Origin: Candidatus Nealsoniibacteriota bacterium
Lineage (GTDB): Bacteria > Patescibacteriota > Minisyncoccia > Minisyncoccales > PWPS01
Assembly: GCA_003560095.1 (NCBI GenBank)
Contig: PWJI01000043.1
Span: 1-44,466, forward strand
Direction: 5' to 3'
Length of the DNA: 44,466 nucleotides
Shown here: positions 5,818-38,002 of the stretch, piece by piece
How the letters are laid out: each line of letters starts with the position of its first letter
How positions within the stretch are numbered: the first letter of the stretch is position 1
Made by a program: the position numbers and the translations under genes
Notes under the pieces: generated by a model
What the model was told of the DNA's origin: nothing
Databases searched by the model: none
What the model saw: only the letters and a program-made list of their open reading frames with translations

Positions 5818-6270
5818 ATGAGAAACGGTGCCATTGCTTTTTTGTTTTTAATTACCTTAGCACTTCTTTTTTATTATTATGATTCACCCGAAGAAGAAAG
5901 AGGAATAGAACAAGAAAGAGAAGAAAGTGTCATCACTGTTCAAGAATATGATTCACCTCAGCAAGAAAGAGAAGAAAGTGTTATCGAGGAAAGTTTTTTA
6001 AGCGAAGACAATGTGCAAGAAGGTCAAGAAATTACTATTACAGGTAATATTTTCTATGACGATTCTAAGAATAATGATTATTTTTGGTACTTAAGGGAAA
6101 AAGAAGAAGAGAAAGAATTAAAATTAATAATGGACGATGAAACCGATTGTCGTATTGAAGCTGATTGCTGTGAAAAATTACTTTCAAACAAAGAAAAGAT
6201 AATAGAAGAAATGGTAACCGTAAAAGGAGAAAAATACGAAAATAAATTAATTGTCAAAGAAATAAAATAA
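5818..6270 (+). CDS. Membrane-anchored hypothetical protein with possible OB-fold-like C-terminus
   Basis: N-terminal TM helix, acidic repeat linker, then 'GQEITITGNIFYDDSKNNDYFWYLRE...VTVKGEKYENKLIVKEI' beta-rich segment. Confidence 0.55.
   Translation: MRNGAIAFLFLITLALLFYYYDSPEEERGIEQEREESVITVQEYDSPQQEREESVIEESFLSEDNVQEGQEITITGNIFYDDSKNNDYFWYLREKEEEKELKLIMDDETDCRIEADCCEKLLSNKEKIIEEMVTVKGEKYENKLIVKEIK
5911..5981 (+). repeat. In-frame direct repeat of 20 bp (caagaaagagaagaaagtgt), period 51 bp
   Basis: Perfect copies at 5911-5930 and 5962-5981, encoding QEREESV twice. Confidence 0.85.
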
Positions 6271-6288
6271 AATATATCTTGTAACAAC

Positions 6289-6813
6289 ATGTCAAATAAG
6301 TTAATACCAAAATCAATTTTTTTTATTTTTCTTTTTGTTGCAGTGCTTGTTTTTCTTTTTATCTTTTTAGGTGAGAAAGATACCGGCAGTGACTTTTCTT
6401 TAATAAAAGAAAGTCATGTTTTTGAAAACCAAAAAGATGTAGTCAAGTACCTTGAGAAAGATGTGATAAATCCTTCAAGAGAAGACGGGGTTGTTTTTGC
6501 CAATTATTATGAGTTTGGCACAGAGAAAGAGAAAATTTTTTTGTGGGCTTATATTGTCGAGTATTATATGGAAAACGGAATAATAAAAGAGGGGGAGAGG
6601 GCTTCTTTGCCGATGACACTTTTTCTTTCAAAATCAAAAAAACCAATAGGGCATAATTATATACAAGAAGAGGGGGATGCTCATAAAATTTTTCCGGAAA
6701 AATACGAAAAAGAGTTAATTAATTTTCGAGAAGACAATAGAAATATAGTTTTAAAATTGGAAAAATCGATAACAGAAAAAGCAGAAAATTATTTTAACGA
6801 AAAACAATTTTAG
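6289..6813 (+). CDS. Membrane-anchored hypothetical protein
   Basis: Single N-terminal TM helix followed by a soluble domain; no family recognised. Confidence 0.6.
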   Translation: MSNKLIPKSIFFIFLFVAVLVFLFIFLGEKDTGSDFSLIKESHVFENQKDVVKYLEKDVINPSREDGVVFANYYEFGTEKEKIFLWAYIVEYYMENGIIKEGERASLPMTLFLSKSKKPIGHNYIQEEGDAHKIFPEKYEKELINFREDNRNIVLKLEKSITEKAENYFNEKQF

Positions 6814-6830: not shown

Positions 6831-6858
6831 TTGTCTTAAATTTTTTTTACTATATAAT
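6831..6858 (+). promoter_or_regulatory. Putative promoter TTGTCT-N16-TATAAT upstream of HAD/glycogen cluster
   Basis: -10 TATAAT at 6853-6858 ends 6 nt before ATG 6865, compatible with a leaderless or very short-leader mRNA. Confidence 0.45.
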
Positions 6859-6864
6859 GATTAA

Positions 6865-7506
6865 ATGGAGGTAGAGAAAAAAGATAGTTTGAAAAGGAAA
6901 GAGGTAATATATTGTTTTGACTTTGATGGTACTATTGCAGACACTCTTCCTCTCATCATCAAAAAAGCGGATTTTGCTTTAAGAAAAAGCGGTATGAAGG
7001 AGATTGATGGTGATTTTTTGAGAAAAATAAGAAAAGAAGGTATTGAGGAAGTTTTTAAAGAAATGAATGTTCCATTATATAAGCTCTTTTTTTTATACAT
7101 AAAAATAAAAAGGGGAATGAATCAAGGCATTGGAGGTGTTGTGATGAAAGAAGAAATGAAAGAAGTTCTTCTTGAATTAAAAAGGAGAAATCATTCTCTT
7201 GGTGTATTAACATCAAATTCAAGAAAAAATGTAAATTATTTCTTGAGGGAAAATGGTGTTGATTTTTTTGACTTTGTAAATAGCTCGGGTATATTTAATA
7301 AGGCGAATAAAATAAAAAAATTAAAAAGAAAAGGAGGGATTTTTGTTTATATTGGTGATGAAATACGAGATATAGATGCGGGAAAAAAAGCAGGGGCCAA
7401 GACAGTTGCAGTCCCTTGGGGCCTTAGCTCAAAAAAAGCATTGCAGCTTGCATGTCCTGATTTTTTAATAGAGAATCCTCGAGATCTTTTAAGTCTTCCT
7501 TTTTGA
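6865..7506 (+). CDS. HAD-superfamily hydrolase (phosphoglycolate phosphatase-like)
   Basis: 'CFDFDGTIADTLP', 'LGVLTSNSRKNV', 'FVYIGDEIRDIDAGKKAGAKTVAVPWG' HAD motifs. Confidence 0.9.
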   Translation: MEVEKKDSLKRKEVIYCFDFDGTIADTLPLIIKKADFALRKSGMKEIDGDFLRKIRKEGIEEVFKEMNVPLYKLFFLYIKIKRGMNQGIGGVVMKEEMKEVLLELKRRNHSLGVLTSNSRKNVNYFLRENGVDFFDFVNSSGIFNKANKIKKLKRKGGIFVYIGDEIRDIDAGKKAGAKTVAVPWGLSSKKALQLACPDFLIENPRDLLSLPF

Positions 7507-7535
7507 AATTTATATAATCTATATTTTCGTTTTTC

Positions 7536-8735
7536 ATGCAAAAAAAAGTACTAATGTTTGGATGGGAATTTCCACCTCATAATAGCGGAGGTCTTGGTGT
7601 TGCTTGCTATGGACTTTCAAAAAATTTGGCAAAAAAGGGAGTGAGAATATCTTTTGTGTTGCCAAAAAAAATTAAAGGAATTGAGAGTGATTTTTTGAAA
7701 ATTATTGACCCTGAATTCGCTTATGAAAACTCTTATCAATTTAATTCTATCTTGCATCCTTATATTACCGAAAAAAAATATGATTCTATTTTCTTTAAAT
7801 CAAAGCCCGTTTACGGAAAAACTCTTTTTGAGGAAGTCTTAAGATATGCCGATTTTGCAGATATTGTTGCTCAAAAAGAAGATTTTGACATTATCCATGC
7901 ACATGACTGGCTTTCCTTTGGTGCCGGAATAAGGGCTAAAGAAAGATCAGGAAAACCCTTTATAGCTCATATTCATGCAACGGAGTTTGATAGAGGCGGT
8001 GGTGAAGGAGTAAATTCTCTTGTCTATAGTCTTGAAAAGGAGGGAATGGAAAAAGCCGATAAGGTAATTGCTGTTAGTTATTTTACAAAAGAAATAATTT
8101 TAAAACATTACGGAATTAATCCCCAAAAAGTGGAAGTAGTGCACAATGGAATTGATTTTTCCAAAGAGGAAGACGTTTCAAGAAATGTCCATCAAATAAA
8201 GAAAGCAGGTAAAAAAGTAGTTCTTTTTGTAGGAAGACTTACCCTCCAAAAGGGACCGGACTATTTTATTAAGGCGGCAAAAAGAGTTTGCGATTTTTCT
8301 AAAGATACTTATTTTATAATTTCAGGTTCTGGCGATATGGAAAATTATTTGATTGAAGAGGTTGCGCGAATGGGGATTTCCGACAAAGTTTTTTTTACCG
8401 GTTTTTTGAGAGGAGAAAAGTTAAAAGAAGTCTATCGTTTAGCTGATTTGTTTGTTATGCCCTCAGTTTCAGAGCCCTTTGGAATAACTCCGCTTGAATC
8501 TCTTATAAACGGTACACCGGTACTTATGTCAAGACAATCAGGTGTTTCAGAAGTTGTTTCGCATGCTCTTAAAGTTGATTTTTGGGATGTAGAAGGTATT
8601 TCTGATAAAATTTTAGCAGTATTAAATTATGATGCTCTTTCCTGTTGCCTTAAAGAGCACGGAAAAAAAGAAGTAAAAAAAATTAGCTGGGAAAGTGCTG
8701 CAGAGAAATGCATAAAGATATATAAATCAACTTGA
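7536..8735 (+). CDS. Glycosyltransferase family 4 (glycogen-synthase-like)
   Basis: 'FGWEFPPHNSGGLGVACYGLSKNL', 'LFVGRLTLQKGPDYFIKAA', 'VMPSVSEPFGITPLESLINGTPVLMS' GT-B motifs. Confidence 0.9.
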   Translation: MQKKVLMFGWEFPPHNSGGLGVACYGLSKNLAKKGVRISFVLPKKIKGIESDFLKIIDPEFAYENSYQFNSILHPYITEKKYDSIFFKSKPVYGKTLFEEVLRYADFADIVAQKEDFDIIHAHDWLSFGAGIRAKERSGKPFIAHIHATEFDRGGGEGVNSLVYSLEKEGMEKADKVIAVSYFTKEIILKHYGINPQKVEVVHNGIDFSKEEDVSRNVHQIKKAGKKVVLFVGRLTLQKGPDYFIKAAKRVCDFSKDTYFIISGSGDMENYLIEEVARMGISDKVFFTGFLRGEKLKEVYRLADLFVMPSVSEPFGITPLESLINGTPVLMSRQSGVSEVVSHALKVDFWDVEGISDKILAVLNYDALSCCLKEHGKKEVKKISWESAAEKCIKIYKST

Positions 8736-8766
8736 AAAAACAATATTTTATTATTTAAATTCTTCT

Positions 8767-9987
8767 ATGCCTTCTATTTGTTTTTATTTTCAGGTTCATC
8801 AGCCATATCGTATAAAAAATTATACCTTTTTTAATATTGGGAAAGATTCTTCTTATTTTGATGATTATAGCGAAAGTCATTTAAGTAATAGTGCAATAAT
8901 GAAAAAAGTTGCTCAAAAATGCTATATTCCAACAAATAGATTATTGCTTAAGCTTCTAAAAAAATATCCTGATTTTCGTTTTAGTTTTTCTTTTTCCGGC
9001 ATTGCCATAGAACAGATGGAGAAATTTGCCCCTGAGGCACTTAAATCTTTTCAGGATCTTATAGACACCAAAAGAGTGGAGGTTCTTGGAGAGACCTATT
9101 ATCACTCACTTGCTTTTTTATATTCAAAAGAAGAATTTTATAAGCAAGTTGAGATGAATAAAGAAAAAATAAAAGATGTTTTCGGTGTTAAGCCAAGAGT
9201 TTTTCGCTGCACCGAACTTGCATATAGCAATGAAATTGCCAAAGAGGCTGAAAAAATGGGATTTGAAGCGATCCTAGGAGAGGGAGTTGATCATGTTTTA
9301 GGATGGAAGAGCCCTAATTTTCTCTATCGAGCAAAAAATGCCAAGATAAAACTTTTTTTAAAAAATTATCGACTTTCTGATGATGTTGCTTTTCGTTTTT
9401 CTGAAAAGAGCTGGAAAGAGCATCCTCTAACTGCTGATAAATTTTCAAAATGGATTTCACAAATAAACGGAAATGGAGAAATAGTTAACCTTTTTATGGA
9501 TTACGAAACTTTTGGTGAGCATCAGTGGGAAGAAACGGGTATTTTTAATTTTTTGGAATCTTTTCCGGGAGAGGTATTAAAGCACAATGATAATAATTTT
9601 TTAACTCTTTCTGAAGCGACTTCTAGATATTGGCCAAAAGATGAAATAGATGTTCCATATATAACATCATGGGCTGATACCGAACGTGATCTCTCAGCAT
9701 GGCTTGGAAATCAAATGCAGCAAGATGCTCTAAAAAAACTATATGAGCTTGAAAAAGATGTTTTTGAAGTTGGGGATGAGGAAGTGATTGATTGTTGGAG
9801 AAAACTACAAACCTCCGATCAAGTTTATTATATGTGCACGAAGGGAATGGGGGATGGAACGGTTCATGACTATTTTAGTCCTTACGGATCTCCTTATGAT
9901 GCTTTTATATGTTTTATTAATGCACTTAGTGATTTTAAATTAAGAATAGAAGAAAAGAAAAAGAACAAAAAAATTGCTAATTTATAA
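8767..9987 (+). CDS. Glycoside hydrolase family 57 (alpha-amylase/4-alpha-glucanotransferase-like)
   Basis: N-terminal 'CFYFQVHQPYRIKNYTF', nucleophile region 'FRCTELAYSNE', acid region 'LFMDYETFGEHQ'. Confidence 0.9.
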   Translation: MPSICFYFQVHQPYRIKNYTFFNIGKDSSYFDDYSESHLSNSAIMKKVAQKCYIPTNRLLLKLLKKYPDFRFSFSFSGIAIEQMEKFAPEALKSFQDLIDTKRVEVLGETYYHSLAFLYSKEEFYKQVEMNKEKIKDVFGVKPRVFRCTELAYSNEIAKEAEKMGFEAILGEGVDHVLGWKSPNFLYRAKNAKIKLFLKNYRLSDDVAFRFSEKSWKEHPLTADKFSKWISQINGNGEIVNLFMDYETFGEHQWEETGIFNFLESFPGEVLKHNDNNFLTLSEATSRYWPKDEIDVPYITSWADTERDLSAWLGNQMQQDALKKLYELEKDVFEVGDEEVIDCWRKLQTSDQVYYMCTKGMGDGTVHDYFSPYGSPYDAFICFINALSDFKLRIEEKKKNKKIANL

Positions 9988-9999
9988 TATTTTATACGT

Positions 10000-11802
10000 A
10001 TGAAAAAAATCAAGACAACTAATCCAAAGTGCGAAAAATTATTTGAGGTTTCTTTTGAGGTTTGCAATAAAGTTGGAGGAATTTATAGAGTGATAGAGTC
10101 AAAAGCGAATAAAATGATACAACACTATGGCGAAAATTATTTTTTAATAGGACCTTATTATAGAGAAAAAGCAAGAGGGGAATTTAAAGAAGAAGCTCCT
10201 CCGATTGAGATGGGAGAGGTTTTTGAAAAATTACAAAAAGAGGGAATAAAATGTTACTACGGAAGATGGCTCATAAAAGGAAAGCCTCATACTATTCTTA
10301 TTGATTTTGGTGATATTTTTTACAAAATAGATGACATAAAAAGAGAGATGTGGGATTCCTTTAAGGTAGACTCTCTTCATGCAGGACACGACTTTAATGA
10401 GCCGGTTTGCTGGGCTTATGCAGTAGGAAGATTCATAAAAGAAATTTCAGAAAAACAAAATGACAAAAAGACGGTAGCTCACTTTCATGAATGGCTCTCC
10501 GGAGCGGGAATTTTATATTTAAAGAAAAACGCAGTTAATGTAAAGACAGTCTTTACGACTCACGCCACAAGCCTTGGAAGAGCACTTGCATTTCATAGTA
10601 TTAATTTTTATCAAAACTTGAAAGAACTCAATCCCGATGAGCAAGCAAAAAAATATGATGTTTTTCAAAAACACTCCATTGAGTGTGCTTCTGCAAGAGA
10701 GTGTAATGTGTTTACTACTGTTAGTGAAATTACCGGCGTTGAGGCAACTCATTTCCTTAAAAGAAAGCCGGATATTATTTTGCCCAACGGACTTGATATA
10801 GAGAAATATTTAAGCTTTGAAGACATTGTCGTAAAGCACAGATTGCAAAGAAAAAGACTCAGAGAGTTTGTTGCTTCTTATTTTTTTCCTTATTATAAAT
10901 TTGATTTAGAGGAGACACTTTTTTATTTTATTATTGGAAGAAATGAGCTAAGAGCCAAGGGTATTGATATTTTCATTGAGTCACTGGGAAAGCTAAATAA
11001 AAAAATGATAGAAGAGAAAAGTAAAAGAACAATTGTTGCTTTTCTTTTTATTCCTACAGAAACAAGAGGTGTTAATCCCTCTCTTCTTGAAAATTTAGAA
11101 TATTTCAGAGATCTTCAGGAGTCATTGGAAGGAGCTTTTCCGGATATTGAAGAGAGAGTTCTTTATAATGTATTAAGAGAAAAAGAGCTTAATAAAGAAA
11201 ATTTAATTGGCGAAGAATATTTATTTGATGTTGAAAAAAAATTACACAGAATGAAGCGAGATGAAGAGACTCCTTCCTTGTCCACACATCACCTAAACTC
11301 TCTTCATGACGAGATAATGAATGGCCTAAAGAGCAATGATTTATTAAATAGGGAAAATGATAGAGTTAAGGTGATATATTATCCTATTTATTTAACAGGG
11401 CACGATGGGCTTGCTAATCTAAACTATGAAGAAACTTTAGAGGCTTGTCACATGGGTGTTTTCCCAAGCTTCTATGAGCCTTGGGGGTACACTCCACTTG
11501 AGGCAGCGGCATTGGGCGTTTCTTCTGTTACAACTAATTTAGCGGGTTTTGGTAAATTTTGTGAAGGAATTAAAAGAAAAAAAGAGCGACCCGGAATTTA
11601 TGTGCTTAGGAGAGAAAAAAACAAAGACGATAGTGTGGTGAAAGATCTTTATCGTTTTCTTCACAAATTTACAAAAACATCAAGAAGAGAAAGGGTTGAA
11701 AACAAAATAGAAGCAAGAAAAATAGCATCTAAGGCTGACTGGAGTAATTTTGTTTTTAATTATATTGAGGCACACAATAAGGCAATAACAAAAAGACAAT
11801 GA
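10000..11802 (+). CDS. Glycogen synthase, GT3 (eukaryote-type) family
   Basis: 'LFEVSFEVCNKVGGIYRVIESKA', 'HFHEWLSGAGILYLKK', 'TTHATSLGRALA', 'FPSFYEPWGYTPLEAAALGVSSVTTNLAGFG' match the GT3 Gsy layout. Confidence 0.9.
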   Translation: MKKIKTTNPKCEKLFEVSFEVCNKVGGIYRVIESKANKMIQHYGENYFLIGPYYREKARGEFKEEAPPIEMGEVFEKLQKEGIKCYYGRWLIKGKPHTILIDFGDIFYKIDDIKREMWDSFKVDSLHAGHDFNEPVCWAYAVGRFIKEISEKQNDKKTVAHFHEWLSGAGILYLKKNAVNVKTVFTTHATSLGRALAFHSINFYQNLKELNPDEQAKKYDVFQKHSIECASARECNVFTTVSEITGVEATHFLKRKPDIILPNGLDIEKYLSFEDIVVKHRLQRKRLREFVASYFFPYYKFDLEETLFYFIIGRNELRAKGIDIFIESLGKLNKKMIEEKSKRTIVAFLFIPTETRGVNPSLLENLEYFRDLQESLEGAFPDIEERVLYNVLREKELNKENLIGEEYLFDVEKKLHRMKRDEETPSLSTHHLNSLHDEIMNGLKSNDLLNRENDRVKVIYYPIYLTGHDGLANLNYEETLEACHMGVFPSFYEPWGYTPLEAAALGVSSVTTNLAGFGKFCEGIKRKKERPGIYVLRREKNKDDSVVKDLYRFLHKFTKTSRRERVENKIEARKIASKADWSNFVFNYIEAHNKAITKRQ

Positions 11803-13529
11803 AGATCATACACTCACTGGGTCCCAAAAGCAAAGAGAGAAAAAATGTTAATAATGTTAGCTTTTCTTTGTCGAACAAAAAAGGTGACTATATTTGGATG
11901 AGTGAGATTTCCAAGAGTCGATACGAGGGTTGGTTTTGTAGGTTATCAAAAAAAATACACCTTGAAGGAAAGAGGTGCTTTGCTTCTTGTGGTGAATCTA
12001 ATCCTGTTTATAGGATTATAGAGTCAATAGAAGTTCAAGAAGGAGGAGAGGTTCTTGAGTTAGTTAATGGCTTTGATCATTTTGAAAGAAAAAGAGAAAA
12101 AGTGGAAGAACTTTTTTATCTTTCAGAATTATCACACGTTTTTGTTTACGAACTGAGCAAAAAAAAGAAAGTTGATGTTTATTTTGATGTTAGAAAGTCT
12201 TATTCTTCGGCTGAGACGAAAGATTACAAGTTAAAAAGGGAAGATGGATTTTTGGTTTTAGAGTTTGATAGTAAAATTTTTCTTGCCATTAAGTGTGAAA
12301 GAGGAGAAGATGTAAATGAAATTTTTCCGCGTTACTATGAATATGATGAAGGAAGAAACTCACCACCCTTTCACAGAAATGTAAGAAAAGGTGTTTGCTT
12401 AGAGGGTAAGAGGTTTGTTTTTGCGCTTGGTGAAAGCAAAAAAGAGGCCAAAAAAGAGGCAGGCAGGATATTTTCTCAAAACTTTTTAAAAGAAGAGGAG
12501 CTAGATACTCTTTGTGTTAAAAACTCTTTAGCAAATCTTTTGGTTCCTGACTATGTTGGTGCATATGCCGGAATTCCTTGGTTTTTTCACTTTTGGCCCA
12601 GAGATGAAGCAATTTCTCTAAAATCAATCATTTCTCTTAATCCTCAGGAGGGTAAAAAGATTTTTTTTAGACTTTTAAGAGATTGTCTTAAAGAGGGGCC
12701 CGGGGGAGCTATTAATATAGATGCTCCAGGATGGCTCTTTAAGAGAACCGCTGATGTTTTGCCGTTTTGCAGTGAGAGAGAAAAAGATATTATTAGAAGG
12801 GAATTAAAAGCAAAGATTGAAGAATTACTTTGGTCTTTTACAAGAAACGGATTTTTAGTAAACGGTCCTTATGAGACTTGGATGGATAGCCTTAAAAGAT
12901 CCGGTGCCAGAATTGAAATGCAAGCAATGAAGATGAATATGTACAAGACAGCTTCTTTTCTTTCAAGAAATAAAGGAGAAAAAATGTTCTATAAAAAGAT
13001 GGAGATGGAAATGAAAGAAAAAACTTATAGGACATTTTTTGATGGAAATAAATTGTATGATGGATATTTTCCGGAAACAAAAAGTCTTGATAAAACAACT
13101 CGTCCAAACTTATTTATTGCAGCCTATATTTATCCTGATCTTCTTTCAAAAAAAGAGTGGATAAATTGCTTCACTCATGCTCTCGATGATCTTTGGCTTT
13201 CTTGGGGAGGAGTTTCTACTATAGATGTCAAAAATAATGATTTTTGCGAAAATCATACAGGGGAGAGTGCTGAAAGTTATCACAAGGGAGATAGCTGGTT
13301 TTATTTAAACAATTTAATAGCCATTATTCTTTACAGGTTTGATAGAAAAAGATTTTCCACGTATATAAAAAAAATAATGAGTGCAAGCGAAGAAGAGATA
13401 ATGTGGAAGGGAGCAATAGGTTCTCATGGCGAGATAAGTTCAGCCACAAAATTAGAAAGTAGGGGTTGTATTAATCAAGCGTGGAGCAATGCAATGTACT
13501 TAGAGGCAAAAAAAGAAATAGAGAGCTAG
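11799..13529 (+). CDS. Glycogen debranching enzyme (amylo-alpha-1,6-glucosidase type, GH133-like)
   Basis: 'VPDYVGAYAGIPWFFHFWPRDEAISL', 'PYETWMDSLKRSGARIEMQAM', C-terminal (alpha/alpha)6-like region; overlaps the GT3 stop by 4 nt. Confidence 0.85.
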   Translation: MKIIHSLGPKSKERKNVNNVSFSLSNKKGDYIWMSEISKSRYEGWFCRLSKKIHLEGKRCFASCGESNPVYRIIESIEVQEGGEVLELVNGFDHFERKREKVEELFYLSELSHVFVYELSKKKKVDVYFDVRKSYSSAETKDYKLKREDGFLVLEFDSKIFLAIKCERGEDVNEIFPRYYEYDEGRNSPPFHRNVRKGVCLEGKRFVFALGESKKEAKKEAGRIFSQNFLKEEELDTLCVKNSLANLLVPDYVGAYAGIPWFFHFWPRDEAISLKSIISLNPQEGKKIFFRLLRDCLKEGPGGAINIDAPGWLFKRTADVLPFCSEREKDIIRRELKAKIEELLWSFTRNGFLVNGPYETWMDSLKRSGARIEMQAMKMNMYKTASFLSRNKGEKMFYKKMEMEMKEKTYRTFFDGNKLYDGYFPETKSLDKTTRPNLFIAAYIYPDLLSKKEWINCFTHALDDLWLSWGGVSTIDVKNNDFCENHTGESAESYHKGDSWFYLNNLIAIILYRFDRKRFSTYIKKIMSASEEEIMWKGAIGSHGEISSATKLESRGCINQAWSNAMYLEAKKEIES

Positions 13530-13533
13530 TTTT

Positions 13534-14787
13534 TTAAATTATTTCAAGAATTTCTTTTATTGTTTTCATTTTTTTGTCATTTAACATTTCTTTTTTTATC
13601 TTTCTGGAAACGGAAAGAGCTGTAAGGGGTTTGGTTTCTTTTACCTTAAACGAAGAAGGGTAGACTGCCTCAAGGTCTTTTTCAAGAATAAAAATCTCTT
13701 TTTCCTTTAAAAGATTTAATTTTTTTTCAAGAGATGTTTTTTTTCCCAATTTGGGAAATTTTTTTATTTTCATCAGAGATGAAGAGTTTAAGGCATCTCT
13801 GTCAAGCATAATTGCATAGGGAATGTTAAAAATATCACAAAGATTTGCATAAAGATCGACAGAGCCTTTGCCACTTGTATAAACAACCTTGATGTCTTTT
13901 TCTTTTTCATAAAAGCGATCAATCATTTCTCTCATAAATATAGAATCAGAAATTCCTTCCACCAAAAGAACTTTGTCTGAAAAAAGCATTCCTGAATTGT
14001 CGTCATTTATTTCTTGAACAAAACGGTCTAAGTCAACATTTTCTTTTTGAAGACCATAAAGGGCGGTACTTTGATTTTTATTGCGAGTAATTCTCCATAT
14101 ATGAGAAAGATACTTTGCTTGCACAAAAGATGGGTGATGTGTAGTGAAAAATATTTGATTTTTTAAATTTTCATCCTTGAGTAGTTGCAAAAACCTTCTA
14201 ATTATTGAAGGATGAAGATGTGTCTCGGGTTCATCGATGAGAATTATTTTGTATTCGGGGTGGAATATATAAAAAAGAATAACAAAAAGACGCTTGAATC
14301 CTTCGCCCATTCGTTTTACTGAACGTTTCTTTTTATCAGAGTATATATTACAAAGAAAAAGCTCTTCATTTATCTCAATTTCTTTAAAGTATTTTTCAAG
14401 AGAATGAGAGAAATTAGTATATTCTTGAGGGTGCTTTTTTTTAAATAACTGTAGATTCTTGGCAATCAAAGAGTAGTTAATTTTCTTATTGATACGAATA
14501 AAACTGTTTCTGAAGTGTATTTTGGGAACAGTTTCGATTTTTCCTTTTCTACAGGAGAGGAGATATTTTTTTCCTTTTTCTGATACAGTTATTGTGATAT
14601 CGGCATCGTTATCGGAAAACCTCTCCTTTTCTAATTTACTGTTAAAAAGAAAATCTATTGCATCTAGAATATTTGTTTTTCCGGCATTATTAGGACCCAC
14701 TAAAATATGAAAATTCAAAAAATCTCTTAAATGAATAGGGTCTTTAATGCTTTTATAATGATTGATTGCAATTTCTTGAATTTTCAT
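13534..14787 (-). CDS. OLD-family ATPase/nuclease with TOPRIM domain
   Basis: Walker A 'VGPNNAGKTNILDAIDFLF', 'IILIDEPETHLHPSIIRRFLQLL', 'FFTTHHPSFV'; TOPRIM 'VLLVEGISDSIFMREMI' and 'IMLDRDAL'. Confidence 0.88.
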   Translation of the reverse strand: MKIQEIAINHYKSIKDPIHLRDFLNFHILVGPNNAGKTNILDAIDFLFNSKLEKERFSDNDADITITVSEKGKKYLLSCRKGKIETVPKIHFRNSFIRINKKINYSLIAKNLQLFKKKHPQEYTNFSHSLEKYFKEIEINEELFLCNIYSDKKKRSVKRMGEGFKRLFVILFYIFHPEYKIILIDEPETHLHPSIIRRFLQLLKDENLKNQIFFTTHHPSFVQAKYLSHIWRITRNKNQSTALYGLQKENVDLDRFVQEINDDNSGMLFSDKVLLVEGISDSIFMREMIDRFYEKEKDIKVVYTSGKGSVDLYANLCDIFNIPYAIMLDRDALNSSSLMKIKKFPKLGKKTSLEKKLNLLKEKEIFILEKDLEAVYPSSFKVKETKPLTALSVSRKIKKEMLNDKKMKTIKEILEII

Positions 14788-14910: not shown

Positions 14911-15234
14911 ATGGATACTAAAAAGATATTAATTATAATCGGTGTTGTTCTTGCTATTGTTGTTGTTGTTGCAGCTGTTTCCTTAATGGACACAGAGATG
15001 CCCGATTATGATGATGATCCTGTAGATGTACCTACTCCAGAGGATCCTACTGCTGATATAGAAACAGCGGAAGATTGTGAAGAAGAAGGATTTTACTGGT
15101 ATGATGACGCTTGTCACTTAGATCCGGAAGAAGATGAAGACGATGAAGATGATGAAGATGAGAATGATGAGGAAGACGAGGATGAAGAAGATGAAGAAGA
15201 TGAAGAAGAGGAAGAAGAGGAAGAAGAAGAATAA
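14911..15234 (+). CDS. Membrane-anchored protein with polyacidic (Asp/Glu) tail
   Basis: N-terminal TM helix, 'DCEEEGFYWYDDACH' Cys-pair motif, about 40-residue D/E tail. Confidence 0.75.
   Translation: MDTKKILIIIGVVLAIVVVVAAVSLMDTEMPDYDDDPVDVPTPEDPTADIETAEDCEEEGFYWYDDACHLDPEEDEDDEDDEDENDEEDEDEEDEEDEEEEEEEEEE
15130..15231 (+). repeat. Low-complexity GAAGAT/GAGGAA simple repeat encoding polyacidic tail
   Basis: Nearly uninterrupted GAN codons. Confidence 0.85.
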
Positions 15235-18575: not shown

Positions 18576-20006
18576 ATGAATGAAATTTATCAAAAAATAA
18601 TAGAAAATGCCAAAGATGCAATAGTTATTATTTGTGATGATGTTGTTGAATATATTAACGAATATGGAGCAAAAAAACTGGGCTATAAAAAAGAAGAAAT
18701 TGTAGGCGCAAATTTCCTGAGCTTTGTGCCAGAAGAAGAAAGGGAAAATCTTGAAAAAGAATATAAGAGTACAATAAAGGGGGAAGAAAGTTTTTTATAC
18801 GAAACAAATTTTAGAACAAAAAATGGAAGAATTATTTTTTCTGAGATTCATGCTCAAAAAATAAATTACAAGGGGAAAATTGCAAGCCTTGCTTTTATAA
18901 GAGATATAACGGCAAGAAAAAAAACATCCGAAATTTTTCATCAACAAGAAGAAAGATTTGAGGCGGTTACCGAAAATACACCTGATATTATTGCGCGTTA
19001 TGACGAAGAAGGTCGCTATGTTTATATTAATGCAGCGGGAGAAAAAGAATTTAAAATAACAAAGAAAGAGGCTTTTTGGAGAACAGACGAAGACCTTGGT
19101 ATAAATAAAGAAAGAATCAAATCCCTCAAAGAGGCGATTGATTTGGTTTTTAAAAATAAAAAAAAGAAAACTTTTTATAGCGAGGGCAGTGCAGGTGATG
19201 CAAGAAAGTATTATTATACAATTCTTGTTCCGGAATTTTTTAAAGATGGGGACGTTAGCTCTGCGCTTAGTATTACAAGAGATATTACGGAGATAAGAGA
19301 AATTGATCAAGCAAAATCAGAGTTTATTGGTATTACATCACATCAGCTTCGATCTCCTCTTTCTGTTATTAACTGGTGCGCGCTTTCTCTTCTAAGAGGT
19401 GAAGAGGGAGAGCTTAATGAAGAAGAAAAAGATTATGTAAAAAGAATTTATGATTCTGTAAGAAAACTAATAAAAATAACAGATGTCTTTTTAAATACCA
19501 CAATGCTTGACTTAGAGATGTTTGTTTTTAACTTACAAACAACGGATGTAGTTGAGGAAGCAAAGAAAATAGCCAATGAGCTTACTCAAGCAGCTAAAGA
19601 AAAAGAAATAAAATTTCTTACTAAGTATGATAAAATTCCTCCTATAAAAATAGACAAAAGGGCATTGAAAATTATTTTAAGGGGTCTTCTTTCCAATGCA
19701 ATGGAGTATTCTTTCTCAAAAGGGAATGTTTTCTTTTCAATAAAGAGAACCTCTGAGGAAGAGTTGACCATTTTTGTAGGAGATGATGGTTGTGGAATAA
19801 ATAAAGAAGATCAAGAGAAAGTTTTTAGTAGATTTTATCGTGCAGAAAATGCAAGAAACATGAAGGCTTATGGAACAGGGCTTGATCTTTATTTAATAAA
19901 ATCCATTATTGAAAAAATAGAGGGAGATATTCGTGTTGAGTCTCCCAATCCTCATTTTAAAAAAGGAACTCTTTTTTCTGTTAAAATACCAATCTCTTTT
20001 AATTAG
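18576..20006 (+). CDS. Soluble PAS-PAS sensor histidine kinase
   Basis: Two PAS segments, H-box 'FIGITSHQLRSPLSVI', N-box 'ILRGLLSNAMEYS', G boxes 'VGDDGCGI' and 'GTGLDLYLIKSIIE'; no TM helices evident. Confidence 0.92.
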   Translation: MNEIYQKIIENAKDAIVIICDDVVEYINEYGAKKLGYKKEEIVGANFLSFVPEEERENLEKEYKSTIKGEESFLYETNFRTKNGRIIFSEIHAQKINYKGKIASLAFIRDITARKKTSEIFHQQEERFEAVTENTPDIIARYDEEGRYVYINAAGEKEFKITKKEAFWRTDEDLGINKERIKSLKEAIDLVFKNKKKKTFYSEGSAGDARKYYYTILVPEFFKDGDVSSALSITRDITEIREIDQAKSEFIGITSHQLRSPLSVINWCALSLLRGEEGELNEEEKDYVKRIYDSVRKLIKITDVFLNTTMLDLEMFVFNLQTTDVVEEAKKIANELTQAAKEKEIKFLTKYDKIPPIKIDKRALKIILRGLLSNAMEYSFSKGNVFFSIKRTSEEELTIFVGDDGCGINKEDQEKVFSRFYRAENARNMKAYGTGLDLYLIKSIIEKIEGDIRVESPNPHFKKGTLFSVKIPISFN

Positions 20007-20019
20007 ATAAATATTATTA

Positions 20020-23000
20020 ATGAGCTTTAAAGAAAGATATGCAAATCTTAATACAAGACAACGCTCAGCAGTTGATAGCACGGAGGGACCCTTGATGGTT
20101 ATTGCTGGACCGGGTTCCGGGAAAACAGAAGTTCTCGGTATGAGAATTGCCAATATTATAAAAAAAACAGACACTCCTCCCGGGAGTGTTTTATGTCTTA
20201 CGTATACCGATGCAGCTTCGGTTAATATGAGAGAAAGGCTTATTGATCTTATAGGAGAAGAAGCTTATCGAGTTTCCGTATACACATTTCATGCGTTTTG
20301 TAAAAAGATTATTGAAAATCACCCTGAGTATTTTTATAAGGGTGTCAGTTTTAATTTAGCGACAAGAGTAACTCAAACCGGAATAATTGAAAAAATATTA
20401 AACGAATTGGATTACAGTGATCCACTTTCCGGCTTTCATCCAAAGCTTGGCTTTGCTTATCTTAAAGACATAGAAAAAAGAATTTTTGAACTCAAAGAAG
20501 AGGGTATTTCTCCAAAAGATTTTCAAAAAATAATAGAAAAAAATGAAATATTTTTTAAAAAAATAGAGCCAAAAATTAATAATGTTTTTAAAGAGAGAGT
20601 TAGTAAAAAAACATTTTCAAAAATAGAGAGCTTTATTGATGATTTGGAAAAGATAAAAGAAGGGGAGTATCCATTTGGCATTACTTCAATAAATAAAGAA
20701 ATTGCTTTCTCTTTAAAAAAAATATTAAAAAAAGGAAGCACAAAAGAAATTTCAAAATGGAAATCCAAAAGAATTATTAAAAAAAATAAAAGATTTGTTT
20801 TGAAAGATGCTGAAAACACGGAAAAGATGAAAAGTTTTTCAAGGATTTATGAGAAATATCAAGAAGAAATGAGGAATGCGGGTTATTATGATTTTTCCGA
20901 TATGATTTTAGATGTTATAAAAGAAATGGAAAAAAATGAGGATCTTTGTAGTTTGATAAAAGAAAAATATCTCTATGTTCTTGTCGACGAATTTCAAGAC
21001 ACAAGCGGAGTACAAATGAGGTTCTTAAATTTACTTTTTAAAGACGATCAAGATAAAAATCCAAATATTTTTACGGTAGCCGATGACGATCAGGCTATTT
21101 ATAGATTCAGAGGTGCTGAGATTGCAAATATTTTAAGGTTTAAAGAAAGTTATCCTAAAACAAGAATTGTTGTCTTAAAAGAGAATTATCGTTCAGTAAA
21201 AGAAATATTGGATTTTTCATACAACACGATAAGAAAAGGAGAAGAGAGATTGGAAAATTACTTTCCTGAAATCAAAAAAAGACAAACAGCAAATAAAAAA
21301 AATAAAGGAAATATTTTTCATAAAGAGTTTAAGACAGAAGAAGAAGAATTTTCTTTTTTAGTAAAAGAAATTGAAAAAGAAATAAAAAAAACTTCTCCGG
21401 AAAAAATAGCTGTAATCGGAAGAACACACAATACCATCAAAAAGGCAATTTCATTTTTTTCCGGCAAAAAGATACCCGTGTATGCGGAAAGGAAGGAAAA
21501 TGTATTAGAAAAAAAACACATAAATGAAATTATAACGATTATAAGATTTGCAAAAACTTTACTTGATGGAAATAGTAGAGATGCTGATTCTTTTTTACCG
21601 GAAATACTGACTTATCCGTTTTGGGGAATAAAAAGAGAGGAAGTTTGGAAAATTTCCGTAATGTCTTATGAAAAAAACATTCCCTGGATAGAGTGTATGA
21701 AAAGAAGAAGAGAAACTTCTTGTATTGCGGATTTTTTATTAGACCTCTCCTTAAGGGTAAAAAATAGTTCGGCCGAAGAGTTGATTGATATTATAATTGG
21801 AAATAAGAAAGGAATTTTTTTAAGTTCTTTTAAGCAATATTATTTCTCAAGAAAAGAATTTAAAAATAATAAAGAAAATTACTTATCTCTTTTATCTTCA
21901 CTAAAATGCTTTATTAAGGCCACGCGTGAATATAAGATAGGTAGGCCCGTAATGGCAAAAGATCTGATTGAATTTGTTGATCTTTTAGAAAAAAACAATA
22001 TCCCTCTTTTAGATAAAAATCCTCTGATTTTAAACGATAATGCTGTTTCATTTATTACCGCACACAGCGCTAAAGGAAGAGAGTATGATTGTGTTTTTGT
22101 CTTAAATTGCAATCAGGGAGAATGGGCAAAGACAAGGAGTAGCAATAAAATATCCTTACCCCTTAATATGCCATTCGAGAAAGAGGCAAATAGCAGAGAT
22201 GATCATTTGAGGCTTTTTTATGTTACAATGACTCGGGCAAAAGAGAAAATTTATTTTATTTTACATAAAAAAGAAGAGAAAAGGGAAAATATACCTCTTG
22301 AATTTATCGAAGACTTGAAAAAAACAAAAGAAAAAATCTCTATTGAAAAAAACAAGCACTCCTTGTCACAAGAGGAAAATTTTTCTTTTTCCAGAAAAGA
22401 AAAGGATTATATTTTTCCTTTAGTAGAAAAATACAAGATAAGTGCAACGGGATTAACAAAATTTCTTAATGTTGAAGAAGGGGGCCCGACAGAATTTTTT
22501 GATAAAAATATATTAAGATTTCCCGAGAAAAAAAGCTTCTCTCTTTCTTATGGGACAGCAATTCATGAGGCTATTTCTTCCATCTATAATATTTTAAAAA
22601 AAGAGGGGAAAGTTATTTCAGAAAAGGAATTTATTTCTCTCTTCAAAAAAGCATTAATAAGAGAAAGGTTGCCGGAAAAAGATTTCAAGAAAGGCTATAA
22701 AAAAGGTAAAGAGGCTCTTTCGATTTTTTATAAAAAAAGAAAAAAAGATTTTATTTCAGAATACGAAATAGAGAAAAATTTTAAATACCAGAATTGTTTT
22801 GTAGGAGATATAGAAATTACCGGAAAAATAGACAAAATGATAAAGAAAGATAATGAAATAGAAGTAACAGATATTAAAACAGGAAAAAGTTTAAAAAACT
22901 TTAATGGGGTAGGGGACTATGAAAAAATAAAAGCATGGAAATACAGAAATCAACTAATTTTTTATAAAATATTAATAGAAAGCGCGCGAGATTATAAAGG

Positions 23001-23235
23001 AAAATATAATGTTAATCGAGGTATTTTAGAATTTGTAGAACCTAGTAACGAAAAAGAAATTGTTACTCTTCTACTTGAAATAGACAGCGAGGAAGCGAAA
23101 AGGCTAAGAAATTTAATTTTTATTATTGGAAAAAAAATAAAAAAATTAGACTTTCCTTCAACCAAAGAATATAAAGGAAAAGGAATTAGAGGAATTAGAG
23201 AGTTTGAAGAAGATATTATAAAAGGAAAAATATGA
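20020..23235 (+). CDS. UvrD/Rep-family helicase fused to PD-(D/E)XK nuclease (AddA/RecB-like)
   Basis: Walker A 'VIAGPGSGKTEVL', 'LVDEFQDTSG', 'DDDQAIYRFRGAE', 'ITAHSAKGREYDCVFV', 'LRLFYVTMTRAKEKIY'; C-terminus 'GTAIHEAISSIY...GKIDKM...EVTDIKTGKS...QLIFYKIL'. Confidence 0.9.
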   Translation: MSFKERYANLNTRQRSAVDSTEGPLMVIAGPGSGKTEVLGMRIANIIKKTDTPPGSVLCLTYTDAASVNMRERLIDLIGEEAYRVSVYTFHAFCKKIIENHPEYFYKGVSFNLATRVTQTGIIEKILNELDYSDPLSGFHPKLGFAYLKDIEKRIFELKEEGISPKDFQKIIEKNEIFFKKIEPKINNVFKERVSKKTFSKIESFIDDLEKIKEGEYPFGITSINKEIAFSLKKILKKGSTKEISKWKSKRIIKKNKRFVLKDAENTEKMKSFSRIYEKYQEEMRNAGYYDFSDMILDVIKEMEKNEDLCSLIKEKYLYVLVDEFQDTSGVQMRFLNLLFKDDQDKNPNIFTVADDDQAIYRFRGAEIANILRFKESYPKTRIVVLKENYRSVKEILDFSYNTIRKGEERLENYFPEIKKRQTANKKNKGNIFHKEFKTEEEEFSFLVKEIEKEIKKTSPEKIAVIGRTHNTIKKAISFFSGKKIPVYAERKENVLEKKHINEIITIIRFAKTLLDGNSRDADSFLPEILTYPFWGIKREEVWKISVMSYEKNIPWIECMKRRRETSCIADFLLDLSLRVKNSSAEELIDIIIGNKKGIFLSSFKQYYFSRKEFKNNKENYLSLLSSLKCFIKATREYKIGRPVMAKDLIEFVDLLEKNNIPLLDKNPLILNDNAVSFITAHSAKGREYDCVFVLNCNQGEWAKTRSSNKISLPLNMPFEKEANSRDDHLRLFYVTMTRAKEKIYFILHKKEEKRENIPLEFIEDLKKTKEKISIEKNKHSLSQEENFSFSRKEKDYIFPLVEKYKISATGLTKFLNVEEGGPTEFFDKNILRFPEKKSFSLSYGTAIHEAISSIYNILKKEGKVISEKEFISLFKKALIRERLPEKDFKKGYKKGKEALSIFYKKRKKDFISEYEIEKNFKYQNCFVGDIEITGKIDKMIKKDNEIEVTDIKTGKSLKNFNGVGDYEKIKAWKYRNQLIFYKILIESARDYKGKYNVNRGILEFVEPSNEKEIVTLLLEIDSEEAKRLRNLIFIIGKKIKKLDFPSTKEYKGKGIRGIREFEEDIIKGKI

Positions 23236-27028: not shown

Positions 27029-27042
27029 AAGACTTTTTGAAA

Positions 27043-28959
27043 ATGATTGAATTTGAAGAAAAGCTCAATAAAGAGCAATTAAAAGTGGTTTACGAGGGCG
27101 ACGGCCCTTGTCTTGTTTTGAGTGGCCCGGGAAGTGGCAAAACAAGAACTTTGGTTTATAGAGTTGCTTATCTTCTTGGAAAAAATGTTCCTCCCAATAG
27201 AATTTTACTGCTTACTTTTACCAAGAGAGCTGCAAACGAAATGATTTCAAGAATTAATAGCCTAACTATGAAAAAAGAAGGGGAAGTTCTTGGAGGAACA
27301 TTTCATCATGCTGCAAATTTCTTTTTAAAAAAATATTTTAAAAAAATAGACTATTTATCGAATTTTATTATTCTTGACGAAGAAGATTCTCGCTCGCTCA
27401 TATCATCAATAATTAAAGAAAAAGGAAAGAAAGATTCTTTAAAAGCTCCGGTTGCTCAAAGAATATTTTCTTTGTCAATTAATTCACTTAAGGAAATTGA
27501 TGAAATTATTGAAGATTATTTTGAATATCTTGATACAAACGCAAAAGAGTGTGCTTTGGGTATTTATAAAGAGTATTGTAAGAGAAAAAAAGAGAACAAT
27601 TTAATGGATTATGATGATCTTTTATTAAATTGGAATAATTTGCTTTTAATACCGGAAATCAGGGAGGAAATATCAAAACAATTTGAATATATTTTAATTG
27701 ACGAATATCAAGATACTAACACTCTTCAAAACGAAATTGTAAAGAAGATAAGTCAGGCTCATGGTAATATCTTAGTTGTTGGAGATGATTCTCAAAGTAT
27801 TTATTCTTTTAGAGCAGCTAATATTGGAAATATATTAAATTTTCCAAAAACATTTAAAAATAGTAAGTTATTTAAGCTTGAATTAAATTACAGAAGCACG
27901 CCTGAAATTCTCGAGGTTGCCAATAGAGTAATAAGAAGTAATACTCAAAAACTTGAAAAAAACTTAAAAAGTACAATTAAGTCAGGCTTTCCTCCTGCTA
28001 TTGTTTCATTTCCCAATTCATCAATGGAGGCAAGATTTGTGTATGAAAAAATAAAAGAAAAAGACTTATCAAAAACAGCGGTGTTGTTTCGTGCCCACTA
28101 TCATGCGGTTGAACTTGAAATGGAGCTTTTGAAACGAAATATACCTTATAACTTAAGAGGAGGAGTGCGTTTTTTTGAACAATTTCATGTTAAAGATATA
28201 ATTGCTTTTTTAAAAATATTTTTAAATTTTTATGATGAAATGTCGTGGCAAAGGCTACTTTTAAGACAAGAAAAAATAGGGGAGGCTGGGGCTAAAAAAA
28301 TAGTTAAAGAAATTTTTAAAAGAAAAAGCATGAAAGAATTTTTAAAAGAAAAAGAGGAAATTGTTTCCTTAATAAGAACTTCTACTGCAAAAGAAAAAGC
28401 AAAGAATTTTTTCTTGATTATTGAAGAAGCACAAGAAAAAGATACAGACAAAAAAATAAATCTTTTTTTGAGCAAATTCTACAACCATTTTTTGGATATT
28501 TCTTTTGAAAATTCTCTTGAAAGAAAAAAAGATATAAAGAAACTCATAGAAGTTTCTGAAAAATATGAAAGTGATGAAAAAATGATTTCTGATTTTTCCT
28601 TGAGTGAAGATTATCAAAAAGAAAGCCCTAAAGGGGGTGCTGTTACATTAAGCACAATTCATCAAGCAAAGGGACTTGAGTGGGAAAATGTTTTTATAAT
28701 ATCATTAAGAGAAGGAGATTTTCCTCATCTTAAATCTTTAGACGAAAATTTACTCGAAGAGGAAAGAAGGCTTTTTTATGTTGCAGTTACAAGATGTAAG
28801 CAAAATCTTTTCCTAACTTACTCAACATACAATTTTAAAAGTAAAAAAGTCTCTACACCGTCCAGATTTATAAAGGAAACAAGTCTTTTAAAAGAGGAAA
28901 GTTATCCCATAAATGACGAAGAAGTGGTTGAGGATAGTGACGAATGGGAGTTTTTTTAA
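27043..28959 (+). CDS. UvrD/PcrA-type ATP-dependent DNA helicase
   Basis: 'CLVLSGPGSGKTRTLVYRVAYLL', 'LIDEYQDTNTLQ', 'VGDDSQSIYSFRAANI', 'TIHQAKGLEWENVFII', 'RRLFYVAVTRCKQNL'; ORF TTG start at 27037, ATG at 27043 preferred. Confidence 0.93.
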   Translation: MIEFEEKLNKEQLKVVYEGDGPCLVLSGPGSGKTRTLVYRVAYLLGKNVPPNRILLLTFTKRAANEMISRINSLTMKKEGEVLGGTFHHAANFFLKKYFKKIDYLSNFIILDEEDSRSLISSIIKEKGKKDSLKAPVAQRIFSLSINSLKEIDEIIEDYFEYLDTNAKECALGIYKEYCKRKKENNLMDYDDLLLNWNNLLLIPEIREEISKQFEYILIDEYQDTNTLQNEIVKKISQAHGNILVVGDDSQSIYSFRAANIGNILNFPKTFKNSKLFKLELNYRSTPEILEVANRVIRSNTQKLEKNLKSTIKSGFPPAIVSFPNSSMEARFVYEKIKEKDLSKTAVLFRAHYHAVELEMELLKRNIPYNLRGGVRFFEQFHVKDIIAFLKIFLNFYDEMSWQRLLLRQEKIGEAGAKKIVKEIFKRKSMKEFLKEKEEIVSLIRTSTAKEKAKNFFLIIEEAQEKDTDKKINLFLSKFYNHFLDISFENSLERKKDIKKLIEVSEKYESDEKMISDFSLSEDYQKESPKGGAVTLSTIHQAKGLEWENVFIISLREGDFPHLKSLDENLLEEERRLFYVAVTRCKQNLFLTYSTYNFKSKKVSTPSRFIKETSLLKEESYPINDEEVVEDSDEWEFF

Positions 28960-37114: not shown

Positions 37115-38002
37115 ATGCAAGAAAAAAAAATAAAAAAAGCAATTATTGCCGCTGCCGGTTATGGTACAAGATTTTTACCAGCGACAAAAAATCAACCCAA
37201 AGAAATGCTTCCCATCATCGATAAGCCAATAATTCATTATTTAGTAGAAGAAGCTGTGCAGTCAGGAATCGAAGAAATTATTTTAGTGACAAGATCGGGA
37301 CAAAATACACTGGAAGATTATTTTGACTCTCACAGAGAACTGGAAAACGAACTTAAAAAAAGTGGTAAAGAAGAGAGACTTAAAGAGATAAAAAAAATAC
37401 CCAAAATGGCTAATTTTATTTATATGAGACAAAAAAGCGATCTTCCTTATGGAAATGCCACTCCCTTGCTTTCTGCCTCTTCAATAATTGATCCTCAAGA
37501 GTCTTTTGTTTATATGTTTGGAGATGATCTTACTGTTTCCCAAAAACCGGTCACAAAACAACTTATTGAGGTTTATAAGAAACAAAAGGCAAAAGCAATT
37601 TTGGGTGTGCAAGAAGTTTCAAAAGAAGATGTTCACAAATATGGAACTGTGCGATACAAGAAAGACGGAGAGTATGAATATGAGATAGAGGAAGCATGCG
37701 AAAAGTTTCCGGCAGAAAAGGCTCCCTCAAGAATGGCAGCTTTTGGTAGATTTGTTTTTTCTTATGATGTGATTGAGAAAGCTCTTCAGACGCCACTTGG
37801 CAAAGATAATGAGTTGTGGGTTATGGATATATTAAATTCTATCGCTAAAGAAGGTAAAAAAGTAATTGCTCAACCAATAGAGGGGGAGTGGTGCACTACC
37901 GGAGACCCTCTTAACTATCTTAAAACATCATTTAATTTTGCAATGAAAAGAAGTGATATTAAAGAAGAACTAATAAATTATTTAAAGAAAAATATAGATT
38001 AA
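37115..38002 (+). CDS. galU: UTP--glucose-1-phosphate uridylyltransferase
   Basis: 'KKAIIAAAGYGTRFLPATKNQPKEMLPIIDKPIIHYLVEEAVQSGIEEIILVT', 'EGEWCTTGDPLNYLKTSFNFAM'. Confidence 0.96.
   Translation: MQEKKIKKAIIAAAGYGTRFLPATKNQPKEMLPIIDKPIIHYLVEEAVQSGIEEIILVTRSGQNTLEDYFDSHRELENELKKSGKEERLKEIKKIPKMANFIYMRQKSDLPYGNATPLLSASSIIDPQESFVYMFGDDLTVSQKPVTKQLIEVYKKQKAKAILGVQEVSKEDVHKYGTVRYKKDGEYEYEIEEACEKFPAEKAPSRMAAFGRFVFSYDVIEKALQTPLGKDNELWVMDILNSIAKEGKKVIAQPIEGEWCTTGDPLNYLKTSFNFAMKRSDIKEELINYLKKNID

What the first reader, a model, noticed from the sequence alone, without database searches (positions are those of the whole stretch)
6865..13529. Compact glycogen cluster built on a eukaryote-type GT3 synthase
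HAD phosphatase, GT4, GH57, GT3 glycogen synthase and debranching enzyme are consecutive with short gaps. Classical bacterial GlgC/GlgA/GlgB/GlgP are absent from the window. GT3 enzymes characteristically use UDP-glucose, and galU is present at 37115-38002. The GT4 could prime or extend and the GH57 could branch or disproportionate. A storage polysaccharide route is notable in a putative reduced-genome episymbiont.
Basis: partly seen in the sequence, partly recalled or inferred. Interest (0 to 1): 0.6.

Follow-up and report, generated by a model that had tools for sequence, protein, structure and literature searches.

The report
Archaeal-type glycogen locus in ultrasmall bacterium
A Nealsonbacteria-like bacterium with a very small genome carries a compact set of genes for making and using a glycogen-like sugar store; the same set occurs in ultrasmall archaea, has no recognised enzyme for adding branches, and makes it possible to test which enzyme does that job.

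Summary
The five genes are real, at the stated coordinates, and tightly packed (gaps of 29, 31 and 12 bp, then a 4-bp overlap). Four of them, GT4-GH57-GT3-GDE, form a conserved core. That core keeps its order in 13 related genomes, recurs in other Patescibacteria families, and occurs in part or whole in DPANN archaea. The HAD gene is only loosely attached. The bin lacks GlgC, GT5 GlgA, GH13 GlgB, a GH57 branching enzyme, GH77 and glycogenin. It does encode a GT35 phosphorylase on another contig, so 'GlgP absent' holds for the window only.

'Eukaryote-type' misleads: the GT3 belongs to a CPR+DPANN clade far from human, Bacteroidota and Planctomycetota enzymes. CPR lineages interleave with Woesearchaeota (DPANN monophyly rejected, AU p=0.0013), which suggests exchange between domains. 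The GH57 has both catalytic residues and the alpha-amylase fingerprint, not the branching-enzyme one, yet it is the only recognisable candidate brancher. In Sulfolobus, deleting the GH57 gene next to the glycogen synthase abolished glycogen (PMC8158581).

Best reading: intracellular storage glucan made from NDP-glucose, probably UDP-glucose, by GT3; GH57 builds or trims branches; GDE (with GT35 where present) breaks it down. No biochemistry was found for this clade. It is a new member of a known archaeal kind.

The parts
7536..8735 (+). GT4 glycosyltransferase, 399 aa, core gene. Nearest described relatives are GlgM/GlgA-type alpha-glucan synthases; both Glu of the EX7E motif (E313, E321) and R234/K239 are invariant. 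Candidate primer-maker or second synthase
   Evidence: Pfam Glycos_transf_1 3.4e-34; best NCBIfam glgA_Coryne 144.9 bits, below its cut-off; best PDB match alpha-maltose-1-P synthase 6tvp; alignment A4; adjacent to GH57 in CPR and DPANN loci
8767..9987 (+). GH57 enzyme, 406 aa, core gene, no signal peptide seen. Nucleophile E150 and acid/base D245 present; alpha-amylase-group fingerprint; the only GH57 in the bin and the only recognisable candidate for alpha-1,6 branching
   Evidence: Pfam 5.1e-79; only GH57 in the bin; fingerprint and 34/34 conservation of E150 and D245 (against PMC6037648); model pLDDT 88.9, best PDB matches GH57 4-alpha-glucanotransferase and amylopullulanase
10000..11802 (+). 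GT3 glycogen synthase, 600 aa, core gene. Catalytic R314, K320, E493, E501; lacks the N- and C-terminal regulatory tails of human GYS1; arginine cluster only partly kept
   Evidence: Pfam Glycogen_syn 2.9e-162; phmmer 5.7e-128 to human GYS1 8cvx over residues 28-615; residue mapping; trees
11799..13529 (+). GDE: GH133-like amylo-alpha-1,6-glucosidase, 576 aa, core gene, overlaps GT3 by 4 bp
   Evidence: Pfam GDE_C 1.5e-21; model pLDDT 93; best fold match 7vma, amylo-alpha-1,6-glucosidase of Thermococcus gammatolerans, E 2.6e-17
6865..7506 (+). HAD-superfamily phosphatase, 213 aa; upstream neighbour in three genera of the family, not part of the conserved core
   Evidence: HAD_2 6.2e-28; homologue found only in L068, L069, L071, L072, L074, L075
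37115..38002 (+). GalU-like UTP-glucose-1-phosphate uridylyltransferase, unlinked (about 23.6 kb away), likely source of UDP-glucose
   Evidence: TIGR01099 260.7 bits, cut-off 326.8; best PDB relatives are UDP-glucose pyrophosphorylases

Best explanation
This is an intracellular storage-glucan (glycogen-like) locus of the DPANN/CPR type. GT3 extends alpha-1,4-glucan chains from an NDP-glucose, most likely UDP-glucose made by the GalU-like enzyme from glucose-1-phosphate (family assignment shown, donor inferred). The GT4, always paired with the GH57, probably makes or extends the primer, since no glycogenin is present (inferred). The GH57, an alpha-amylase-group retaining glucosidase/transglycosidase, acts on the growing polymer to create and/or trim branches, because no GH13 or GH57-type branching enzyme is found (inferred). 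GDE removes alpha-1,6 stubs during breakdown (fold shown, activity inferred). GT35 phosphorylase releases glucose-1-P in genomes that have it; elsewhere breakdown must rely on the GH57 and GDE. The locus has moved between Woesearchaeota-like archaea and CPR bacteria (tree-based inference).
For: Family and fold assignments. Catalytic residues kept in GT3, GH57 and GT4. Operon-like packing and conserved order across 13 related genomes, six GT3+ Patescibacteria from three other families and DPANN. Co-occurrence of this GH57 with GT3, 16/18 against 0/82. Context genes of glucose-1-P and nucleotide-sugar metabolism beside GT3 in relatives: GalT-like, phosphohexomutase, GT35, GH15. Phosphohexomutase and GT35 in the bin. 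No GH13, GlgC, true GT5, GH77 or GT8. Precedent: Sulfolobus acidocaldarius amyA-glgA operon, where the amyA null accumulates no glycogen (PMC8158581; that this amyA is GH57 is stated in PMC11046441). Expressed glycogen genes in a nanohaloarchaeon (PMC10266531).
Against: The GH57 lacks the branching-enzyme fingerprint (T248 where branching enzymes have Leu; Tyr-Tyr 354-355 where they have Phe plus a non-aromatic residue), so it may only hydrolyse and the product could be a linear glucan. GT35 is missing from other near-complete genomes of the genus. Donor nucleotide, primer role of GT4 and polymer structure are untested; no GT3 of this clade was found to be characterised.
Confidence: 0.75

Rival explanations
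1. Purely degradative GH57: the GH57 is an intracellular alpha-amylase that with GDE mobilises the glucan, and the polymer is linear or branched by an unrecognised enzyme.
For: Alpha-amylase fingerprint and intact catalytic pair; GT35 absent from most of the genus, so a hydrolase is needed for breakdown; extract assays in Sulfolobus showed AmyA hydrolyses long chains.
Against: A GDE specific for alpha-1,6 bonds makes little sense for a linear glucan; GH57 co-occurs with the synthase much more strictly (16/18) than the phosphorylase does (5/18); the Sulfolobus amyA null loses glycogen instead of over-accumulating it.
Confidence: 0.35
2. GH57 is a 4-alpha-glucanotransferase (disproportionating enzyme) and branching is absent or done elsewhere.
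For: Closest solved structure by sequence and by fold is the Thermococcus litoralis 4-alpha-glucanotransferase; no GH77 amylomaltase in the bin.
Against: Position 23 is Thr, not the Lys of 4-alpha-glucanotransferases, and position 12 is Arg, not Trp (PMC6037648); only about 16% identity.
Confidence: 0.15
3. The locus uses imported or host-derived maltodextrin: GT3/GT4 store incoming oligosaccharides and no de novo synthesis takes place.
For: Small genome and probable host dependence; no GlgC.
Against: No sugar-import genes in the core cluster; GalU-like enzyme and phosphohexomutase present; relatives carry GalT-like and mutase genes in the cluster.
Confidence: 0.1

Closest known systems
DPANN archaeal GT3 glycogen genes (Woesearchaeota, Nanohaloarchaeota; reviewed in PMC11046441, expressed in PMC10266531)
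   Same: GT3, GT4, GH57 alpha-amylase and GH133-like GDE, often adjacent; GT3 in one clade
   Different: Here the host is a CPR bacterium, all four genes lie in one strand and order, and GT3 is typically followed directly by GDE. Many Woesearchaeota split the set into two divergent pairs
Eukaryotic GT3 glycogen synthase (GYS1, Gsy2)
   Same: Whole GT3 core, R331/K337/E510/E518 equivalents
   Different: No N- or C-terminal phosphorylation tails, no glycogenin, arginine cluster partly lost, separated by a long branch
Sulfolobus glg locus (amyA-glgA; PMC8158581)
   Same: GH57 amylase next to the synthase, no GlgB, GlgP unlinked
   Different: GT5 synthase with glgC, GlgX debranching enzyme and GH15 glucoamylase; no GT3
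Classical bacterial GlgCABXP
   Same: Presumed end product; a GT35 phosphorylase is present in the bin
   Different: No GlgC, GT5 GlgA, GlgB or GlgX (GH13)
GH57 alpha-amylase group (Methanocaldococcus jannaschii type)
   Same: All diagnostic fingerprint positions
   Different: Found in CPR and always paired with GT4; activity unknown

Membership tests
GT3 glycogen synthase | Full-length Glycogen_syn domain with catalytic R, K, E...E | tested here: met
GT3 glycogen synthase | UDP-glucose donor, primer-dependent alpha-1,4 chain extension | not testable with these tools
   Needs enzyme assay; the review reports archaeal GT3 as uncharacterised
Eukaryotic-type GT3 | Groups with eukaryotic enzymes; regulatory tails; glycogenin partner | tested here: not met
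   CPR+DPANN clade on a fully supported long branch; tails absent; no GT8 in the bin
Glc6P-activated GT3 | Glc6P site (human K301, R579, R582, R586; H291, Q294) | tested here: inconclusive
   Phosphate-side residues kept as R284, R562, R565, K569, but Q294 is replaced by V277
GH57 alpha-amylase group | Glu/Asp catalytic pair; Q/E at 1, R at 12, T at 23, YY at 35-36 | tested here: met
GH57 branching enzyme | Leu at position 23, Trp/aromatic at 12, Phe + non-aromatic at 35-36 | tested here: not met
GH57 branching enzyme | Branching activity | not testable with these tools
   Works-like claim remains open
GH133 amylo-alpha-1,6-glucosidase | GDE_C domain and fold of archaeal/yeast GDE | tested here: met
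GH133 amylo-alpha-1,6-glucosidase | Amylo-1,6-glucosidase activity | not testable with these tools
   Needs assay
GlgM (GT4, maltose-1-P synthase) | Above curated cut-off; partner GlgE (GH13) | tested here: not met
   144.9 of 302.4 bits; no GH13 in the bin
Classical GlgCAB pathway | GlgC, GT5 GlgA and GH13 GlgB present | tested here: not met
   about 13 kb of masked contigs could not be searched

The most novel reading that the evidence does not exclude
A four-gene glycogen cassette has been exchanged between ultrasmall bacteria (CPR) and ultrasmall archaea (DPANN); in it an 'alpha-amylase-group' GH57 is a previously unrecognised class of branching enzyme and the paired GT4 replaces glycogenin as primer-maker.
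Probability: 0.3. Interest if true: 0.65.

Novelty: new member of a known kind. Interest (0 to 1): 0.42.

Why it matters
A 2024 review asks whether the GH57 'amylase' kept by archaea that lack branching enzymes is the missing brancher, and says that glycogen in DPANN is unproven (PMC11046441). This locus isolates the question in four adjacent genes whose GH57 is strictly tied to the synthase and which occur in bacteria as well as archaea. It also shows that minimal, probably host-dependent cells keep an energy store, and it adds a multi-gene metabolic trait to the list of things shared between CPR and DPANN.

Tried and rejected
Eukaryotic origin of GT3: rejected by tree. Classical pathway elsewhere in the genome: searched, not found apart from GT35. 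GT35 contig as a contaminant: suspected because pyrH is duplicated (C17 and C51, 82% identical). C51 is a 4-kb, 36% GC contig and carries another cross-contig duplicate, whereas C17 (28 kb, 31-33% GC) resembles the window contig and few other duplicates exist, so C51 is the likelier contaminant (contigs over 20 kb were only partly read). GlgM-GlgE route: rejected, no GH13. Trehalose synthesis by a TreT-like GT4: TreT not among the best 60 PDB matches. Upstream genes 5818-6813 as part of the locus: no clear homologues beside relatives' clusters. HAD as core: rejected. Promoter and terminator scan: counts at chance level, though a 10/12 site sits at 6831-6858. Literature searches for CPR GT3 glycogen loci found only general mentions.
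Full report
OBSERVATION. The window is contig 47 of a 768-kb, 55-contig bin (99.66% complete, 4.5% contaminated). The five ORFs are intact and on one strand, spaced 29, 31 and 12 bp with a final 4-bp overlap. Pfam identifies HAD_2, a GT4, GH57, Glycogen_syn (GT3) and GDE_C.

WHAT IS CONSERVED. In the related genomes whose contigs are long enough, GT4-GH57-GT3-GDE keep order and strand: L067-L076 and L078-L080, 13 loci covering four genera of the family and two further families. The HAD gene is seen only in three genera of the family. In the phylum-wide sample, GT3 above cut-off is rare (9 of 380). The six GT3+ genomes from three other families that were read all have GDE beside GT3, and five of the six show the GT4-GH57 pair as well; the sixth locus ends at its contig's edge. 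Two add a GalT-like gene between GT3 and GDE, and three have GT35 near the cluster. In a scan of genome contigs, GT3 loci of CPR and DPANN often carry GH57, GT4 and GDE, whereas none of the Planctomycetota, Bacteroidota and other bacterial loci do within 10 kb. Within the order the amylase-type GH57 occurs in 16 of 18 GT3+ genomes and in 0 of 82 others. Relatedness inflates the significance of that figure. The two exceptions are a contig that ends beside GT3 (G005) and a differently arranged locus (G025).

GENOME-WIDE COMPLEMENT. The bin has no GH13, no bona fide GT5, no GlgC above cut-off (best match is the galU-like gene), a single GH57, no GH77 and no GT8. It does have a phosphohexomutase and a GT35 alpha-glucan phosphorylase (TIGR02094, 548 bits against a 191.7 cut-off). 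GT35 is otherwise seen in the sister genus g2 but not in other near-complete members of the genus. A duplicated pyrH shows some foreign DNA in the bin; contig size, GC and further duplicates point to 4-kb contig C51, not to the GT35 contig. Five contigs (about 13 kb) are masked and could not be searched.

ENZYMES. GT3 aligns over its whole length to the human GYS1 core and keeps R331, K337, E510 and E518 (as R314, K320, E493, E501), but it lacks the regulatory tails. Of the Glc6P site (PMC9287172) the phosphate-side basic residues remain, while Q294 is replaced, so allosteric control is uncertain. GH57 keeps nucleophile E150 and acid/base D245 in 34 of 34 homologues and shows the alpha-amylase fingerprint of PMC6037648 (Q at 1, R at 12, T at 23, Tyr-Tyr at 35-36), not the branching-enzyme one. 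Its model (pLDDT 88.9) matches GH57 catalytic domains at about 16% identity, glucanotransferase and amylopullulanase before branching enzymes. GDE gives a confident model (pLDDT 93) whose best match is Thermococcus amylo-alpha-1,6-glucosidase 7vma. GT4 is nearest to GlgM/GlgA-type synthases but below every curated cut-off. No signal peptide was evident by eye, so an intracellular glucan is most likely.

ORIGIN. In the GT3 trees (quick method, SH-aLRT only) CPR and DPANN form one clade on a long, fully supported branch, apart from human, Bacteroidota and Planctomycetota sequences. CPR rows fall in several places among Woesearchaeota, and holding DPANN together is rejected (AU p 0.0013). The GH57 and GDE trees are compatible with shared history but are weakly resolved. 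This fits repeated exchange between domains. Direction is not proven, and mis-binned contigs are possible for single cases such as G095 (9.4-kb contig).

MECHANISM. Shown: gene order, family, fold and catalytic residues. Inferred: glucose-1-P to UDP-glucose by the GalU-like enzyme; priming or extension by GT4; chain growth by GT3; branch formation or trimming by GH57; debranching by GDE; phosphorolysis by GT35 where present. The branching step is the weak link and the interesting one. In Sulfolobus acidocaldarius, which lacks a known GlgB, deleting the amylase gene co-transcribed with glgA abolished glycogen accumulation (PMC8158581), and a 2024 review poses the same question for archaea in general (PMC11046441).

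COMPARISON AND VERDICT. Glycogen genes are already reported in DPANN, and expressed in one nanohaloarchaeon (PMC10266531), and in general terms in CPR (PMC5220378). The locus is therefore a new member of a known archaeal kind in a bacterial host. What raises interest is the CPR/DPANN sharing and a compact system for testing the missing branching enzyme.

Noticed in passing
13534-14787 (-): OLD-like ATPase/TOPRIM nuclease related to retron and defence effectors (retron Eco8-type 67.8 bits, below cut-off), conserved directly downstream of the glycogen locus in most of the family.
   Followed up: partly
14911-15234 (+): 107-aa protein with a membrane segment and a long Asp/Glu-only tail.
   Followed up: no
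18576-20006 (+): PAS-domain sensor histidine kinase conserved near the locus in the family.
   Followed up: no
20020-23235 and 27037-28959 (+): Two UvrD-type helicases close together, the first fused to a PD-(D/E)XK nuclease.
   Followed up: no
L069:10194-11411: In relative G001 the GT4 is split into two ORFs, so it may be broken or mis-assembled there.
   Followed up: no
G000:C17:27319-28044 and G000:C51:1349-2068: Two pyrH copies 82% identical: the bin holds some DNA of a close relative, probably contig C51.
   Followed up: partly
L097:5317-6261, L185:8242-9168, L186:5919-6845: A GalT-like uridylyltransferase gene sits between GT3 and GDE in other CPR genomes (11 loci carry the family), a hint to UDP-glucose supply; an ADP-glucose phosphorylase role is not excluded.
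   Followed up: partly
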